Below, piece by piece: positions 513-8,207 of a DNA stretch of 13,322 nt (within the stretch, counting starts at the first letter, position 1; every line of letters begins with the position of its first letter). Below the pieces are notes generated by a model. The model worked only from the letters and a program-made list of their open reading frames with translations. It did no database searches and was not told the origin of the DNA. A program made the position numbers and the translations under genes. This DNA comes from Burkholderiales bacterium (lineage in GTDB: Bacteria; Pseudomonadota; Gammaproteobacteria; Burkholderiales; SG8-39), in NCBI GenBank assembly GCA_029266935.1, contig JAQSVY010000047.1, positions 1-13,322 on the forward strand, given 5' to 3'.

Positions 513-560
513 GACGCTGCTCGCCCCCGGGGCGGCGACTCAACCCGGCTGGCCGGGTTG
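513..560. terminator. Paired GC hairpins between convergent genes
   Basis: Between the lipoprotein stop and the end of the multicopper oxidase there is a small hairpin near 521-533 (CGCCC, loop CCG, GGGCG). A stronger one lies at 541-560: CAACCCGGC and GCCGGGTTG arms of 9 bp around a central TG, realistically 8 bp with a 4-nt loop. The second arm pair overlaps the last codons and stop of the oxidase gene. Placement between two converging genes suggests a bidirectional transcription end. Neither stem has a T-run, so rho-independent activity is uncertain. Confidence 0.4.
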
Positions 561-2531
561 CGCAGGGCCGATCCGATAGGGCCGCATCATCTCGTTATCC
601 TCGTGCTCCAAGATGTGGCAATGCCAGACGTACTGTCCACCTAGCCCGAACGTCATTCGGATTCGGGTGACCTCGCCCGGATAGGCGATCACCGTGTCCT
701 TCCGTCCGTTTTCCGTCGGTCCAGGCGGAGCTGCCGTCTGAATCGGCACTCCCGTCTTCTTGTCCATTCGTTGCCGGTTCACGATCTCGAAGAACACCTC
801 GTGGATGTGGATGGGGTGAGCGTCGGCCGTGAAGTTGTACAGTTCCCAGACCTCGGTGACGCCGGGCGCCGGATTCTCCGTCTCCTCATCCTCCCATTTC
901 TTGAACACGATACCGTCCGGAGCGCCCACTGTCGGATCGAACGTGCCTAGACGGGCCTCGATGGGAAGGCCGTCCTCCGGTGGCTCTGACTCCATTTCGA
1001 GCAACGCCAGCTGCCGCACGGGCCCGCCGGTCAGGGGCGATAGCGCGGGCATGACGAGCTGTTCGGGCGGCGTCGTGTCATCCGCCGCAACGAGCGGCTG
1101 ATTGACCCGGAATTGCATGACCAGCCCGGTGCTCCGTGGGTCGGCCCTGCGGAAACCGCCGCCGGCGAACGGCGCGTCCGGGCCCATGTTGAGCAAGGTC
1201 ACGTTCGTGCCGAACTTCACCTGGGAGAAGTCCACGATGACATCCGCACGCTCCGCCGGCGCCATGAGGATCTGGTTGAGCTTGGTCGGCGCGCGCAGGA
1301 AGCCACCCTCGGTCCCTATCTGCCACGCCTCGACCTTCGGGTCGTCGAACCTCAGGATCAGGAAGCGCGACTGGCAGCCGTTCAGCAGGCGGAAGCGATA
1401 GCGCCGCGGCTCGATCTCGAGGAACGGCCAAGTCGTGCCGTTCACCACGATGCAGTTACCGAAAAACTCGGGGTTCCATATCGGCGAGATATCGCTGTCG
1501 GGGATATAGGGGCCGGGGAAACCGTCGAAGAACGCCCGCGTGTCGGGATAGAACAGCGAGCCGTTCTCATTGAACGACCGGTCTTGGATTGCGATCGGGA
1601 TCTCGTAGTACGTGCCGAACGGATCTGCGCCGACACCCGGGGCCGGCCCCGGAAGAACGGCCGCTCCGGCCTCGCCTGTGATCGTCGGGTTGTCGTCGGA
1701 GCTGGTGCTCCGGATGAGGTAGAAACCCGCCGGCCCTGCGTACACGTTGAGACGCGTCATGCCGAGAGTGTGGTCGTGGTACCACGCCGTCGAGGGCCGT
1801 TGACTGTTGGGATACGCAAAAGTGGCGTAACCGGCGCCCCAGTCCGTCACGCCGGCTGATGCGGCCTTGTCCTTGAAGAACTCGTACCAGGTCCCATGCG
1901 TAGCGAAACCCGCCGGAATGTTCGTGGCGTCGGGTAGATACCATGCCTCGGCATAGCCGTCGCTCCAATCTTCGACGCGTTCCATGCCGTGGACGTGCGT
2001 AACGATCGGCACCGGGCCCGTGTATGGCCCCGGTGTCGCCGCGAAGACTGGGCGGGAGTCGCGCGTCCCGGTGCCGTTCATCGGAGCATCCCTCCCGTTC
2101 GGTGGATTAGCCCAGTGCAGCGTCGGGTCAACCGGCAGCAGGTGCGGCAGGAAACTGCCGTCTCCATTCCTGAGCTCGTTGATCCACGTCACGGTGGTCG
2201 GCGTGCCTCGTGTTGCCTCGATCGTGAAGGCGGGGTAATTGAAGGTCAACGCATCGGTCGTCGAGCCGTAGCTCCAGACCGTCGTGGGCTGCAGGGGAGC
2301 TGGGAGGATCTGCTGGCTGAACTGCCGCACCGCGATGCTGTAATGGTCCGCGCCCGATGTGGGCATCGCCGGTGGTTTGACTAATGGCGTGACGAATTTG
2401 GGGATCGCGCGGGGCGGTAGCGTGCCGCCCGGGATTGCTGCGATTGCCTCCTCGACACCGAACTCATTCACCGCGTACAGGGTCAGCGCGCCCGCGCTGC
2501 TGAACTTTAGGAATGTGCGCCGGGTAATCAT
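540..2531 (-). CDS. Tat-exported multicopper oxidase (CotA/laccase-like)
   Basis: A 663-residue multicopper oxidase that should oxidise phenolic, aminophenolic or metal substrates in the periplasm, coupled to reduction of O2 to water. The N-terminus carries a twin-arginine signal (TRRTFLKF, residues 3-10), consistent with export of a folded copper protein. All four copper-ligand motifs are present: HVHG (His179, His181), YHDHTLGM (His252, His254), HPIHIH (His572, 575, 577) and HCHILEHEDNEMM. In the last, Cys638, His643 and Met648 give the type-1 site spacing C+5=H and C+10=M. The HCHILEHEDxxMMRPY ending is typical of the three-domain CotA / bilirubin oxidase / phenoxazinone synthase branch rather than CueO. 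The start is supported by AGGAGA (2543-2538) 6 nt upstream of ATG. It is divergent from the 3-hydroxyanthranilate dioxygenase gene. The physiological substrate cannot be read from the sequence. Confidence 0.93.
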   Translation of the reverse strand: MITRRTFLKFSSAGALTLYAVNEFGVEEAIAAIPGGTLPPRAIPKFVTPLVKPPAMPTSGADHYSIAVRQFSQQILPAPLQPTTVWSYGSTTDALTFNYPAFTIEATRGTPTTVTWINELRNGDGSFLPHLLPVDPTLHWANPPNGRDAPMNGTGTRDSRPVFAATPGPYTGPVPIVTHVHGMERVEDWSDGYAEAWYLPDATNIPAGFATHGTWYEFFKDKAASAGVTDWGAGYATFAYPNSQRPSTAWYHDHTLGMTRLNVYAGPAGFYLIRSTSSDDNPTITGEAGAAVLPGPAPGVGADPFGTYYEIPIAIQDRSFNENGSLFYPDTRAFFDGFPGPYIPDSDISPIWNPEFFGNCIVVNGTTWPFLEIEPRRYRFRLLNGCQSRFLILRFDDPKVEAWQIGTEGGFLRAPTKLNQILMAPAERADVIVDFSQVKFGTNVTLLNMGPDAPFAGGGFRRADPRSTGLVMQFRVNQPLVAADDTTPPEQLVMPALSPLTGGPVRQLALLEMESEPPEDGLPIEARLGTFDPTVGAPDGIVFKKWEDEETENPAPGVTEVWELYNFTADAHPIHIHEVFFEIVNRQRMDKKTGVPIQTAAPPGPTENGRKDTVIAYPGEVTRIRMTFGLGGQYVWHCHILEHEDNEMMRPYRIGPAQPGQPG

Positions 2532-2837: not shown

Positions 2838-4300
<1,463 letters not shown>

Positions 4301-4328: not shown

Positions 4329-5771
4329 CTAGCGCCGGGCTGCGAGCCGCCTGAGCTCGGGCTTCAGCACCTTGCCCATGGCGTTGCGGGGCAGGGCGTC
4401 AACGAACACGACGCGGCGGGGATGCTTGTAGCGGGCGAGCTTGCCCTCGAAGAGCTTCAGGACCTCCTCTTCCGTCAGCTTGGAGACGACGCATGCGCAG
4501 GCGGCCTCGCCCCATTTCGGGTCCTCGACCCCGACCACCGCCGCCTCGACGATGCCCGGGCAGTCCGCGAGCACGTTCTCAAGCTCGGCGGGATGGATGT
4601 TCTCGCCGCCGGAGATGATCACCTCTTTCGAGCGGCCGACGATCCAATAGAAGCCTTCTTCGTCGATCCGCGCGAGGTCGCCGGTGCGGAACCAGCCATC
4701 CTCCGTGAGGCCCGAGTAGTCGGGCCAGTAGCCGCGCATCACCGCCGGGCCGCGCACCCAGATCTCGCCCTCCACCAGCTTCACATCGCAGTGCGGGGCG
4801 GGCTTACCGGTGCTGCCGACCTTGCGCAAAGCATCTTCTTTGAGAAGCACAACAGCGATAGGCGCGGTCTCAGTACAGCCGTAGATCTGGCCGACCGGCA
4901 CGCCGCGCTCGTGGAAGGCGCGGATGAGGGAATCGGGCACGACCATGGAACCGGTATTCAGAAGCTTTAACGAAGATAAATCTGCTCCTTTCCAATCGGA
5001 ATGGTTGATCACTGCCGCCATGGTGGCAGGCACCAGCAGGCTGATCGTCGGGCGCCGCTTCGCCACGTCGGCGAGCCAGGCGCCCGCCTCGAAGCGCTTG
5101 TGCAGCGTCACCGTGGCGCCGGCGACGAGGGCAGGGAGCGTCTGGTTGTTGAGGCCGCCGACGTGGAACATCGGCAGCGGGCTCAGCACATGGTCGGATT
5201 GCGAGAGATCGTGCGCGTGGATCGACATCGGCAGCGGGCTCAGCACATGGTCGGATTGCGAGAGATCGTGCGCGTGGATCGAGTTGAAGCCGTTCCAGAG
5301 CAGCGCCGACTGCGTCAGCACCGCGCCCTTAGGGATGCCGGTGGTGCCGGAGGTATACACGATGAGCACATCGTCTGCGTCTTCACCTCTCAACGGATCG
5401 GTGTTTTGCTCCTTCAGGTTTCCCTGGGGCACGCCAAGCTTCGCAGCAGCATCGGCGAAGTCGCCGTCCGAGAAAATGAGCTTCGGCGTGCAATCGGCGA
5501 GGATGCGCTTGTGCTCGGCCGCGGTGAGGCGCCAGTTGAGCGGCACCAGGATCGCTCCGCGGCGCGCCGCGGCGAAGAGCAGCACCAGCATATCGGGATG
5601 GTTGTAGCCGAGCCAGGCGATCCGCTCTCCTTTGCCGACTTGCAATGACTGGGTAGCGGCGTCGATTCGCTTCCACAATTCAAGGTAGCTGTAGGCCGCG
5701 CCGTGGAAATGCAGCGCCACCTTGTCCGGGAGATGTCCGGCCCAGCGCTCGATGATCCGCGAGAGGTTCAA
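4329..5771 (-). CDS. Acyl-CoA ligase (AMP-forming) with 19-aa tandem duplication
   Basis: A 480-residue ANL-superfamily ligase that would activate a carboxylic acid through an acyl-adenylate to a CoA thioester. Visible motifs: P-loop YTSGTTGIPKG (139-149); LPMFHVGG substrate-pocket strand (199-206); YGCTET (297-302); WFRTGDL (360-366); IVGRSKEVIISGGENI (377-392), with hinge region and A8 loop; and the catalytic C-terminal Lys467 in NAMGKVLKPEL. A 19-residue block (starting SIHAHDLSQSDHVL) occurs twice in direct succession at about 164-182 and 183-201, encoded by a perfect 57-bp tandem repeat. Without it the protein would be 461 residues, short for the family. The start is a TTG at 5771-5769 whose last two bases overlap the TGA of the acyl-CoA dehydrogenase. 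No closer start exists and residue 2 onward matches a normal ligase N-terminus. It is last in a three-gene operon. Substrate is unknown. The duplication may impair activity. Confidence 0.88.
   Translation of the reverse strand: MNLSRIIERWAGHLPDKVALHFHGAAYSYLELWKRIDAATQSLQVGKGERIAWLGYNHPDMLVLLFAAARRGAILVPLNWRLTAAEHKRILADCTPKLIFSDGDFADAAAKLGVPQGNLKEQNTDPLRGEDADDVLIVYTSGTTGIPKGAVLTQSALLWNGFNSIHAHDLSQSDHVLSPLPMSIHAHDLSQSDHVLSPLPMFHVGGLNNQTLPALVAGATVTLHKRFEAGAWLADVAKRRPTISLLVPATMAAVINHSDWKGADLSSLKLLNTGSMVVPDSLIRAFHERGVPVGQIYGCTETAPIAVVLLKEDALRKVGSTGKPAPHCDVKLVEGEIWVRGPAVMRGYWPDYSGLTEDGWFRTGDLARIDEEGFYWIVGRSKEVIISGGENIHPAELENVLADCPGIVEAAVVGVEDPKWGEAACACVVSKLTEEEVLKLFEGKLARYKHPRRVVFVDALPRNAMGKVLKPELRRLAARR
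5168..5282. repeat. Perfect 57-bp tandem duplication
   Basis: Bases 5168-5224 are repeated without a mismatch at 5225-5281, and one further matching base follows at 5282. The unit length, 57 bp, equals 19 codons, so the reading frame of the surrounding acyl-CoA ligase is kept. The second copy follows directly, with no spacer. Perfect identity points to a recent slippage or unequal recombination event, or to an assembly artefact. Confidence 0.97.
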
Positions 5772-7003
5772 TCGCTCTCGCCAGGCTCGTAGAGCGCCTC
5801 GCGGCCGATGCGGTCGAGACAGAGCTCGGCGGTCCAGGGAAGCATCAGCGAGCCGCAGCGCGAGTCGCGGTACAGGCGCTCGAGGGGCAGGGACTTGAGC
5901 ATCGACTGCCCGCCGCAGGTGCGGATGGCGAGGCGCGCGATCTCGTTGGCGTTCTCCATGATGGTGTACTGCGCTGCGTAGGCGCGCAGGCGCGAGTCCT
6001 TGGGCGGGTCGATGCGCGCGTCGTCGAGCATGCGCAGGAAGAGGGCGCGCGTCTGCTCGAGCTTCACCCACATTTCGGCGACGGCGATCTGCTTGGTCGG
6101 GTACATGCGCCGCTTCACCGGCGGGGTGCCGGGCACCTCGCCGCGCAGGTAGCTCACCGTGAAGTCGTAGGCGGCAATGGCGATGCCCATGTACGTCGGG
6201 GAGAGGGTGGTGAACATGTGCGGCCAGCGCCGCGCCGCCTGGTGGTAGATGCCGCGCGGCATCATCTGCGCCTCGTCGGGAACGAACACGTCCTTGAACA
6301 CGAGCGTGCGCGACACGGTGCCGCGCATGCCGAGAGGGTCCCAGTCGCCGGTGATGGTCAACCCGGGCGCGTCGCCCGGCACCGCCATGTACAGCGTGTC
6401 GCGCATCGAGAGCTCGGGCTTCTCCTCGGTGCAAAGCACGCCGTAGTAATGCGCAGCACCCGAGAGCGAGGCGAAGATCTTCTTGCCGTTGATGCGCCAG
6501 CCGCGCGAATTCCCCACTTCGGTGCGCGCGGCAGTAGTGCCGAAAGGCGCCATGCCGGCCGCCGCGGCGCTGCCCTCCGAGAAAGGCTGGGCGTAGATCG
6601 CCCCGTCGCGTACGACGCGCTGGAAGTGCGCGGCGCGATGGCGCTCGTGCTCCGCGCGCTGCTCTGGGGTCATGTCGAGAGCGTCGGCGAGCACGCCGGG
6701 CCAGAGCGTCGAGCACGCATGCATGTTGAAGGTGAGAGCGGTCGTGCCGCAATACTTGCCGAGCGTCGCGGAAACGAGCGCGTAGGTCTTGAGGTCGGCG
6801 CCACGCCCGCCTAGCTTCTCCGGCACGCACAGGCCCAGCAGGCCCGCATTCTTCAGGTCGGCGTAGTTCTCGTGCGGAAAGCTCGCTTCGCGGTCGTAGC
6901 GATCGGCGCGCTCGGCGAAGGCGGGCCCGAGCGATTCGGCAAGCTCGATCAGCTCGTTCTGCTTCGGGGTGAGGAAGTAATCGCTGCCGCAGACCGAAGT
7001 CAT
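5768..7003 (-). CDS. Acyl-CoA dehydrogenase family flavoprotein
   Basis: A 411-residue protein with the acyl-CoA dehydrogenase layout: an N-terminal helical domain (about 1-130), a central beta domain, and a C-terminal four-helix domain including the RTCGGQSMLKSLPLERLYRD segment. Members normally oxidise acyl-CoA at C2-C3 using FAD, passing electrons to ETF; some relatives are flavin monooxygenases. The C-terminal motif that usually carries the catalytic base (RDxxxxxxYEGT) reads here as RDSRCGSLMLPWT (379-391). By eye the Glu position is Leu388 and GT is replaced by Pro-Trp. The start ATG overlaps the hydrolase stop (ATGA), with GGAG 7 nt upstream. Adjacent CoA ligase and hydrolase suggest one pathway for an unknown organic acid. 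Family membership is confident; dehydrogenase activity is less so. Confidence 0.88.
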   Translation of the reverse strand: MTSVCGSDYFLTPKQNELIELAESLGPAFAERADRYDREASFPHENYADLKNAGLLGLCVPEKLGGRGADLKTYALVSATLGKYCGTTALTFNMHACSTLWPGVLADALDMTPEQRAEHERHRAAHFQRVVRDGAIYAQPFSEGSAAAAGMAPFGTTAARTEVGNSRGWRINGKKIFASLSGAAHYYGVLCTEEKPELSMRDTLYMAVPGDAPGLTITGDWDPLGMRGTVSRTLVFKDVFVPDEAQMMPRGIYHQAARRWPHMFTTLSPTYMGIAIAAYDFTVSYLRGEVPGTPPVKRRMYPTKQIAVAEMWVKLEQTRALFLRMLDDARIDPPKDSRLRAYAAQYTIMENANEIARLAIRTCGGQSMLKSLPLERLYRDSRCGSLMLPWTAELCLDRIGREALYEPGESD

Positions 7004-7722
7004 AGATGCTCCAGGAACCTCTCGAGAACAGTGTTGAAGGCGTCCGGCTGGTCCATCGGCCCCAGGTGGCCGCAGCCTTCGAGCAGCACGTACTGCGCGC
7101 CGGGTATCCGCTTCGACATCTTCTCCAGGACCGCGGGCGGTGCAACCTGGTCGTCGCTGCCGGCGACGAGGAGGGTCGGCACACGGATCTTCGGCAGGTT
7201 CTCGCGGCGGTCGAAGGTCGTCAGGAGGTGCACGGCCTTGCGATACGTGTCCGGTGGCACCGCCGCCATTGTGCGCCGGGCCAGTTCCACGCCTGCCGGG
7301 TCGGACTTCGTGCCGCGCATTGTCGGCATCAGCCCGGCGGCGATCTCGGCCATGCTCTTGCCCTGGTCGAGCGGCCCAGTTCGCGCCGCGACGAACTGGT
7401 GCGCAAAGCCGCTGCCAGCGGGAAAAGCAGAGCTGGTGAAGGTCAGCGCCAGCGCCCGCACCCGATCCGGGAAGCGCGCGTAAATCTCTTGGGCAACCAT
7501 GCCTCCCATGCTGTGGCCGACCAGCACTGCCGGCTCCTCGATCTGCCGGCGCAGTGCCTCGGCGACCCTTTCGAATGTATAGGGCTCGACCGGCGCCGTG
7601 CCGCCGTACCCAGGCTGGTCCCACGCCACGCAGCGATAGCCGCGCTCCGAGAAGTGCAGCAGCTGGCCGTCCCACCCGGCGCGACCGCCGCCGACGCCGT
7701 GCAGGAAATAAAGCGTGGTCAC
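7000..7722 (-). CDS. Alpha/beta-fold hydrolase
   Basis: A 240-residue alpha/beta hydrolase without a signal peptide, so cytoplasmic. Motifs: oxyanion-hole HGVGG (8-12), nucleophile elbow GHSMGG with Ser71, an acid at Asp190 or Asp191 in AGSDDQVAPP, and catalytic His219 in GCGHLGPMDQP. This is the compact form seen in enol-lactone hydrolases, carbon-carbon bond hydrolases and esterases, so the substrate cannot be named. The start is taken as GTG at 7722-7720, directly before TTLYFLHG, since the fold begins there; an open frame extends further upstream but runs through the divergent DUF1178 gene and has no family-like sequence. No good Shine-Dalgarno site is visible. It is the first gene of the operon and overlaps the dehydrogenase start by 4 nt (ATGA). 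Confidence 0.85.
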   Translation of the reverse strand: MTTLYFLHGVGGGRAGWDGQLLHFSERGYRCVAWDQPGYGGTAPVEPYTFERVAEALRRQIEEPAVLVGHSMGGMVAQEIYARFPDRVRALALTFTSSAFPAGSGFAHQFVAARTGPLDQGKSMAEIAAGLMPTMRGTKSDPAGVELARRTMAAVPPDTYRKAVHLLTTFDRRENLPKIRVPTLLVAGSDDQVAPPAVLEKMSKRIPGAQYVLLEGCGHLGPMDQPDAFNTVLERFLEHL

Positions 7723-7745
7723 GGCTGCATTGTAGAATCGCCTAA
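7723..7745. promoter_or_regulatory. Short divergent promoter region
   Basis: Only 23 bp separate the divergent starts of the hydrolase operon and the DUF1178 gene. TAGAAT at 7733-7738 on the plus strand matches the -10 consensus at 5 of 6 positions and would give a very short leader for the DUF1178 gene. No good -35 box lies at the right distance. Any promoter for the minus-strand operon must lie within the DUF1178 coding sequence. Confidence 0.35.
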
Positions 7746-8207
7746 ATGATTGTTTTCGACCTGCTTTGCGCCGACGGCCACCGTTTCGAGGGCTGGTTCG
7801 CCTCGGCGGCCGACTTCGCCTCGCAGAACGAACGGCACCTGGTCGCTTGCCCGACCTGCAGCTCGGTTGCGGTCGAACGCATCCCGTCCGCCACCCGCAC
7901 CAACCTCGGCGCCGAGCCGCCGACGCCCCAGCCCGAGCCCGGGCAGCCGCAGAAAACACCGGACATGGAAGGCAAGGACCCGTTTGCGATCGCCCAAATC
8001 CTCTACTCGCGCATGCTGGACGAACTTCTCACCAAGTCCGAGGACGTCGGCAAGCAGTTCCCGGAAGAGGCGCGCCGCATCCACTACAACGAGGCGCCGG
8101 CGCGGGCCATCCGCGGCCAGGCGACCCAGGAGGAGCATGACGAGCTGGTGGACGAGGGCATTCCTGTCGCGCGGCTCCCTCTTCCGCCGTCCGGCAAACT
8201 CAACTAG
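7746..8207 (+). CDS. DUF1178 family protein
   Basis: A 153-residue cytoplasmic protein of the DUF1178 family, found widely in proteobacteria and without an established function. The N-terminus MIVFDLLCADGHRFEGWF is the family signature. Cys8, His12 and the pair Cys35/Cys38 (CPTC) look like a small zinc-ribbon-type metal site. A Pro-rich linker (about residues 55-75) leads to a helical C-terminal part with the conserved GQATxEEHDELVDEGIPVARLPLP pattern near the end. The ATG at 7746 matches the usual family start, although no Shine-Dalgarno site precedes it, in line with a very short leader. The gene stands alone between the divergent hydrolase and the methyltransferase. Confidence 0.88.
   Translation: MIVFDLLCADGHRFEGWFASAADFASQNERHLVACPTCSSVAVERIPSATRTNLGAEPPTPQPEPGQPQKTPDMEGKDPFAIAQILYSRMLDELLTKSEDVGKQFPEEARRIHYNEAPARAIRGQATQEEHDELVDEGIPVARLPLPPSGKLN

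What the first reader, a model, noticed from the sequence alone, without database searches (positions are those of the whole stretch)
5168..5282. Perfect in-frame 57-bp tandem duplication inside an acyl-CoA ligase
Bases 5168-5224 recur exactly at 5225-5281, adding 19 residues (SIHAHDLSQSDHVLSPLPM) between the P-loop and the LPMFHVGG substrate-pocket strand. In relatives one such block is expected. Zero divergence between copies in a GC-rich gene implies a very recent event, a reversible slippage allele (on/off switch of the enzyme), or an assembly error. Because it sits beside the acyl-binding pocket it may change substrate range or inactivate the enzyme.
Basis: partly seen in the sequence, partly recalled or inferred. 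Interest (0 to 1): 0.75.

Follow-up and report, generated by a model that had tools for sequence, protein, structure and literature searches.

The report
Recent short duplication in ligase gene
An ordinary acid-activating enzyme gene in a metagenome-assembled bacterium carries a fresh, exact 57-base stutter that adds 19 amino acids; it looks like a single recent copying accident that may well damage the enzyme, and is not a new kind of genetic system.

Summary
In detail: 5168-5224 recur exactly at 5225-5281, in frame in a minus-strand AMP-binding acyl-CoA ligase (TTG 5771 to stop 4329, 480 aa), adding SIHAHDLSQSDHVLSPLPM. It is derived and, in what I could read, private. All 120 listed homologues (90% cluster representatives) have one block, including one identical at 449 of 461 residues outside the gap. 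The P-loop-to-FH spacing is 44 residues in all 34 readable same-subfamily rows and 63 here. Assembly error is disfavoured, not excluded: two sampled contig pairs overlap by exactly 99 nt, implying final k = 99, while the array's longest repeated word is 58; no other tandem pair in 34 readable sampled contigs. AlphaFold2 models residues 164-187 as an unstructured loop (pLDDT below 50) with a shorter preceding helix than in the one-copy relative, at modest confidence. Most likely this is one recent slippage duplication, probably reducing activity, reversible in principle. I found no evidence for an evolved on/off switch. Interest is low.

The parts
5168..5224 (-). copy of the 57-bp unit (low-coordinate copy; second in the direction of translation)
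   Evidence: TRF 100% matches
5225..5281 (-). copy of the 57-bp unit (high-coordinate copy; first in the direction of translation)
   Evidence: TRF 100% matches
5162..5167 (+). breakpoint word CGTGGA, outer copy; 54 bases from the next one, possible re-pairing site
   Evidence: flanks printed; offset -3 match of 6; 7.5% of window positions do as well
5216..5221 (+). breakpoint word CGTGGA inside the unit (recurs at 5273-5278 in the other copy)
4329..5771 (-). acyl-CoA ligase (AMP-binding and AMP-binding_C), 480 aa from a TTG start that overlaps the upstream stop
   Evidence: P0002 begins at the same residue
5768..6961 (-). acyl-CoA dehydrogenase, upstream neighbour (start chosen by me)
   Evidence: Pfam; neighbour conserved in relatives
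7000..7746 (-). alpha/beta hydrolase (start chosen by me)
   Evidence: Pfam
2991..3506 (+). 3-hydroxyanthranilate dioxygenase (stretch searched; the likely ATG is at 2997)
   Evidence: Pfam 3-HAO; also beside the ligase in L004 and L060
3503..4300 (+). FAA-hydrolase-type protein, facing the ligase
   Evidence: Pfam

Best explanation
A single, very recent in-frame tandem duplication of 57 bp in the coding sequence of an ANL-superfamily acyl-CoA ligase of a betaproteobacterial MAG (Burkholderiales by the names of relatives). Inferred mechanism: during synthesis of the + strand the nascent end (CGTGGATCGA) peeled off and re-paired at the upstream CGTGGA-A site with TCG bulged out, so that 54 + 3 = 57 bases were copied twice; end joining with 1 nt of microhomology would give the same product. 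Shown: exactness, frame, absence from the relatives that could be read, and an otherwise intact gene. Inferred: the enzyme keeps its P-loop, FH and C-terminal motifs in sequence but carries a 19-residue loop between the helix after the P-loop and the pocket strand, which most likely weakens or abolishes activity; the allele can in principle revert by loss of one copy.
For: Exact repeat, 115 nt at 100%. The same protein with one block is 449/461 identical outside the gap, and 120 of 120 listed homologues have one block (111 by motif spacing, 9 by eye). Same-subfamily genome loci: spacing 44 in all 34 readable rows (28 distinct contigs, judging by equal contig lengths), 63 only in the window. 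The junction 24-mer is exact in 1 of 98 family genomes, this one. Two sampled contig pairs overlap by exactly 99 nt, while the longest repeated word at the array is 58, so a k = 99 graph passes it unambiguously. No other tandem pair in 34 readable sampled contigs. CGTGGA pair 54 bp apart at the breakpoints. P0001 breaks 0 of 148 columns invariant in 45 relatives. AlphaFold2: residues 164-187 below pLDDT 50 and helix 155-163, against helix 154-168 (155-169 in P0001 numbering) with block pLDDT 72-93 in the one-copy P0002.
Against: The 6-base match at the breakpoints is not rare: 7.5% of window positions do as well at distance 57, and strict microhomology is 1 nt, so the bulge model is only suggestive. 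No raw reads could be seen, so a chimeric read, a minor variant or an error carried over from a smaller k is not excluded. The k = 99 inference rests on two contig pairs; neither end of the window's contig overlaps another contig of the bin. The no-decay result is weak: 17 of the 45 relatives also score 0 in the leave-one-out test. Listed homologues are 90% cluster representatives, so a two-copy member inside a cluster would be hidden. Both structure models are modest (mean pLDDT 72.2 and 75.9; pTM 0.67 and, lower, 0.62 for the one-copy form) with other low regions in both, so the functional step is inference.
Confidence: 0.75

Rival explanations
1. Artefact: the second copy comes from a chimeric read, a misjoin or an error carried over from a smaller k-mer round of the assembly.
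For: The source is a 56.53% complete bin of 375 contigs and no reads are at hand. Contigs of two relatives (G006, G074) break within this region, so it is a place where strains can mix in assembly.
Against: Contigs overlap by exactly 99 nt in two pairs while the repeated word is 58; no other tandem pair in 34 readable sampled contigs; both flanks of the junction match the same one-copy relative.
Confidence: 0.17
2. A reversible allele that switches the ligase off or shifts its substrate range: copy number 1 and 2 coexist in the population and are selected in turn.
For: Direct repeats can lose a copy (recalled). The insert lies between P-loop and FH motif, and the model is disordered there. Intragenic tandem duplications linked to phase variation exist in pneumococcal capsule genes (titles and a passage in PMC4022640).
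Against: Only two copies, in frame, join microhomology 1 nt; no relative that could be read shows another copy number; the exact junction is in 1 of 98 family genomes.
Confidence: 0.06
3. An old, selected feature of a ligase subfamily: the doubled helix-strand block is a normal structural element.
For: The frame is kept and the gene is otherwise intact.
Against: The copies are identical at DNA level; all 120 listed homologues and all 34 readable same-subfamily rows have one block.
Confidence: 0.02

Closest known systems
Spontaneous intragenic tandem duplications of pneumococcal capsule genes (Waite et al. 2001, 2003; seen only as titles in the reference list of PMC4022640, with one sentence there on a duplication in wchA)
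   Same: Short head-to-tail duplication inside an open reading frame of a bacterial gene.
   Different: There a loss of capsule expression and phase variation are stated; here no second state and no phenotype are known, and the unit keeps the frame.
Microhomology-mediated tandem duplications in the fission yeast ssp1 gene (passages of the review PMC13207564; primary paper PMC8639346 not held)
   Same: Short local duplication in a coding region, reversible in principle.
   Different: Those use microhomology pairs at the ends and are described as making a premature stop; here the join shares 1 nt and the frame stays open.
In-frame tandem duplications in the tail fibre gene of phage EfV12-phi1 (passages of PMC6365445)
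   Same: In-frame, tandem, inside one gene, recent.
   Different: 1.8 kb unit, variable copy number, selected in coevolution; here 57 bp, two copies, selection unknown.
Single-block ligases of the same subfamily (P0002 and relatives; solved relatives include 8wev, 8weu, 3r44 by sequence)
   Same: Same domains, motifs and operon neighbours.
   Different: They lack the extra 19 residues.

Membership tests
AMP-binding (ANL) acyl-CoA ligase | AMP-binding and AMP-binding_C domains above the curated cut-offs | tested here: met
   242.6 bits (cut-off 29.9) and 69.5 bits (cut-off 24.5)
AMP-binding (ANL) acyl-CoA ligase | P-loop TSGTTGIPKG, FH, GWFRTGD, GRSKE and C-terminal GK motifs (roles recalled) | tested here: met
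   present in the reading; no invariant column broken
AMP-binding (ANL) acyl-CoA ligase | family spacing between P-loop and FH motif (44 residues in the subfamily) | tested here: not met
   63 here, 44 in all 34 readable same-subfamily rows; one added block, so the protein still belongs to the family
AMP-binding (ANL) acyl-CoA ligase | ligase activity | not testable with these tools
   needs purified protein
Spontaneous intragenic tandem duplication | exact head-to-tail copies | tested here: met
Spontaneous intragenic tandem duplication | absent from near relatives | tested here: met
   (listed or held sequences only)
Spontaneous intragenic tandem duplication | microhomology of several bases exactly at the join (common, not required) | tested here: not met
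   1 nt; a 6-base word is offset by 3
Phase-variable duplication locus | two states in one population | not testable with these tools
   no reads held
Phase-variable duplication locus | the states differ in reading frame or by a stop | tested here: not met
   57 = 3 x 19; frame open through both copies

The most novel reading that the evidence does not exclude
The two-copy form is one state of a reversible allele: cells gain and lose the 57-bp copy at appreciable rate, and the 19-residue loop beside the acyl pocket switches the ligase off or shifts its substrate, giving mixed populations for the catabolic operon (hydrolase, acyl-CoA dehydrogenase, ligase).
Probability: 0.06. Interest if true: 0.5.

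Novelty: new member of a known kind. Interest (0 to 1): 0.15.

Why it matters
If real, it is a snapshot of a short in-frame duplication caught before divergence or loss, inside a well-conserved enzyme core. It is useful mainly as a natural test of how a 19-residue loop between P-loop and acyl-pocket strand is tolerated, and as a reminder that such alleles in metagenomes should be checked by read mapping. It does not open a new class of system.

Tried and rejected
Rejected: (1) ordinary family feature: no readable relative has it. (2) Part of a larger array: only two copies, and no other tandem row above score 39 in the window. (3) Overlap-join artefact of length 57: the contig overlap seen in this bin is 99. 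(4) Hairpin-promoted slippage: the DNA fold of 5150-5300 is no more stable than shuffles (z 0.71; 152 of 200 shuffles fold at least as well). (5) Gene decay: none seen, though the test is weak. (6) A recurrent unstable site: contigs of two relatives (G006, G074) break within this region, but the readable ends show one block. The two G074 ends encode nearly the same residues with different bases and share no overlap, so I read that break as strain mixing; the G006 ends share no overlap either and the cause of that break is not known.

Left out of the count of 34: L003 (the window itself); L064-L069 and L072 (other ligases; spacing printed as 46, 49, or 92 by a motif miss); L073, L074 and one L066 row (no spacing found); and eight loci where my P-loop motif found nothing (L014, L015, L020, L023, L055, L060, L070, L071). 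Of these eight, one search shows one block in L015 and, from a contig start, in L020, L023 and L060; L014/L055 (one contig), L070 and L071 stayed unread at the site.

Led nowhere: eight paper searches. For a duplication in an acyl-CoA synthetase, one search lists 5 papers, none about this by title or start of abstract. PMC8639346 is not held. Fold searches were never accepted.

Full report
Observation. The window is the whole of contig C356 (13,322 bp) of a bin of 375 contigs and 2,188,172 bp, 56.53% complete and 0.74% contaminated. Bases 5168-5224 and 5225-5281 are identical and one further base matches. On the minus strand this lies in an acyl-CoA ligase (Pfam AMP-binding, 242.6 bits, and AMP-binding_C, 69.5 bits). 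The start is most likely TTG at 5771, overlapping the stop of the upstream acyl-CoA dehydrogenase (TTGA). P0002, the closest listed homologue, begins at the same residue. The codon view reads ...AAC [TCG ATC CAC ... CCG ATG] [TCG ATC CAC ... CCG ATG] TTC CAC GTC....

Relatives. The protein search scored 8,000 candidates and listed the best 120; all 120 have one block (111 by motif spacing 44, 9 by eye). The listed proteins stand for clusters at 90% identity, so a two-copy member inside a cluster would not be seen. The nearest, P0002, is 449/480 identical with one 19-residue gap, i.e. 449 of 461 outside it. A search of 199 genomes (the bin and its relatives) found ligase matches in 198, many of them distant paralogues. 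L015, whose P-loop my first motif missed, also shows one block, as do the contig starts in L020, L023 and L060; L014/L055, L070 and L071 stayed unread at the site. The junction 24-mer, with up to 3 mismatches allowed, hits 10 of 98 family genomes: exactly in this one, and with 3 mismatches in nine others, none of them at a ligase place listed; the reversed control pattern hits 2 of 98. So the insertion is derived and, within what is held and readable, private.

Is it real? No reads are available. Indirect test: in the sampled contigs, two pairs overlap at their ends by exactly 99 bases, not 98 or 100, the mark of a de Bruijn assembly ending at k = 99 (recalled). The longest word repeated at the array is 58 bases, shorter than k, so the two-copy path is unambiguous in such a graph and would not come from gluing a 57-base overlap. 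Neither end of the window's own contig overlaps another contig of the bin, so k = 99 is inferred from other contigs. Of 39 further contigs asked for (254,305 bp), five read all N; the 34 readable ones (240,328 bp) hold no exact or 90%-complete tandem pair of unit 15-499. In one search, of 74 loci scanned for exact pairs of unit 15-499, only the three that cover the window itself hit. A systematic assembly fault is therefore unlikely; a chimeric read or an error carried over from a smaller k remains possible.

How it arose. The array extends beyond two units by only one base, so strict microhomology is 1 nt. A 6-base word CGTGGA stands at both breakpoints, 54 bases apart; re-pairing there with a 3-base bulge gives the observed 57. 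The word exists because the coding strand reads ATC CAC G and TTC CAC G (Ile-His and Phe-His codons), which would also explain why the event stays in frame. This fits, but 7.5% of positions in the window do as well, so it is a suggestion. The DNA fold of the region is not unusually stable (z 0.71).

What it does. The gene sits in an arrangement, alpha/beta hydrolase - acyl-CoA dehydrogenase - ligase, that recurs in many of the fetched relatives, often facing an FAA-hydrolase-type protein; 3-hydroxyanthranilate dioxygenase is also there in L004 (same genus) and L060 (flanks are short, and more distant relatives such as L024-L026 and L029-L031 show the ligase alone). P0001 departs from none of 148 columns invariant in 45 relatives. 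This is weak evidence against decay: 17 of the 45 relatives also score 0 and the other 28 score 1-4 in the leave-one-out test. Either the event is young or the enzyme is still used. AlphaFold2, given 45 of the 120 homologues, predicts for the one-copy P0002 helix 154-168 and strand 175-178 (block pLDDT 72-93). For the window protein it predicts helix 155-163, then residues 164-187 below pLDDT 50, then strand 195-198 from the second block (P0001 numbering is one ahead of P0002). The extra block is thus modelled as a disordered loop and the helix is shortened; confidence also falls around the P-loop (blocks from residue 121: 63, 59, 44 against 88, 80, 51). Overall confidence is modest in both (72.2 and 75.9), and pTM is lower for the one-copy form (0.62 against 0.67). 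I infer reduced or lost activity (about 65%), near-normal activity (about 25%) or altered specificity (about 10%); none of these was tested.

Comparison. Spontaneous tandem duplications inside open reading frames linked to phase variation are known in pneumococcal capsule genes (Waite et al. 2001 and 2003, seen here only as titles in the reference list of PMC4022640, plus one sentence there on a tandem duplication within wchA in culture, passages). Reversible microhomology-mediated duplications are described for the ssp1 gene of fission yeast (PMC13207564, passages; the primary paper is not held). In-frame tandem duplications under selection occur in a phage tail fibre gene (1.8 kb; PMC6365445, passages). 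The present case shares the structure (exact, head-to-tail, intragenic) but shows no second state and no phenotype. It is one more instance of a known kind, and I do not file it as a phase-variable locus.

Verdict. A real-looking, recent, private, in-frame duplication (best explanation 0.75), with an artefact as the main rival (0.17). The switch reading stays at 0.06: nothing found here supports it beyond the general instability of direct repeats, and only reads or cultures could raise it.

Noticed in passing
L095/L096 (G006) and L097/L098 (G074), contig ends: In two relatives the contigs end inside the same conserved stretch of the ligase gene. The readable ends carry one block; the two G074 ends encode nearly the same residues with different bases, suggesting mixed strains.
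   Followed up: partly
window 2991-4300 and 4329-7746: 3-hydroxyanthranilate dioxygenase and an FAA-hydrolase-type gene face a hydrolase - acyl-CoA dehydrogenase - ligase run; parts of the arrangement recur in relatives, e.g. L004 of the same genus. The substrate of the ligase is not known.
   Followed up: partly
window 5769-5771: The ligase seems to start with TTG overlapping the dehydrogenase stop (TTGA), which suggests translational coupling.
   Followed up: no
window 4924-5607 and 5001-5648, + strand: Two long open frames run antisense to the ligase through the duplication (227 and 215 aa). They are probably a by-product of GC-rich codon usage.
   Followed up: no
window 540-2531, - strand: Multicopper oxidase (Pfam Cu-oxidase_2, 70.3 bits, and Cu-oxidase_3, 22.9 bits).
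   Followed up: no
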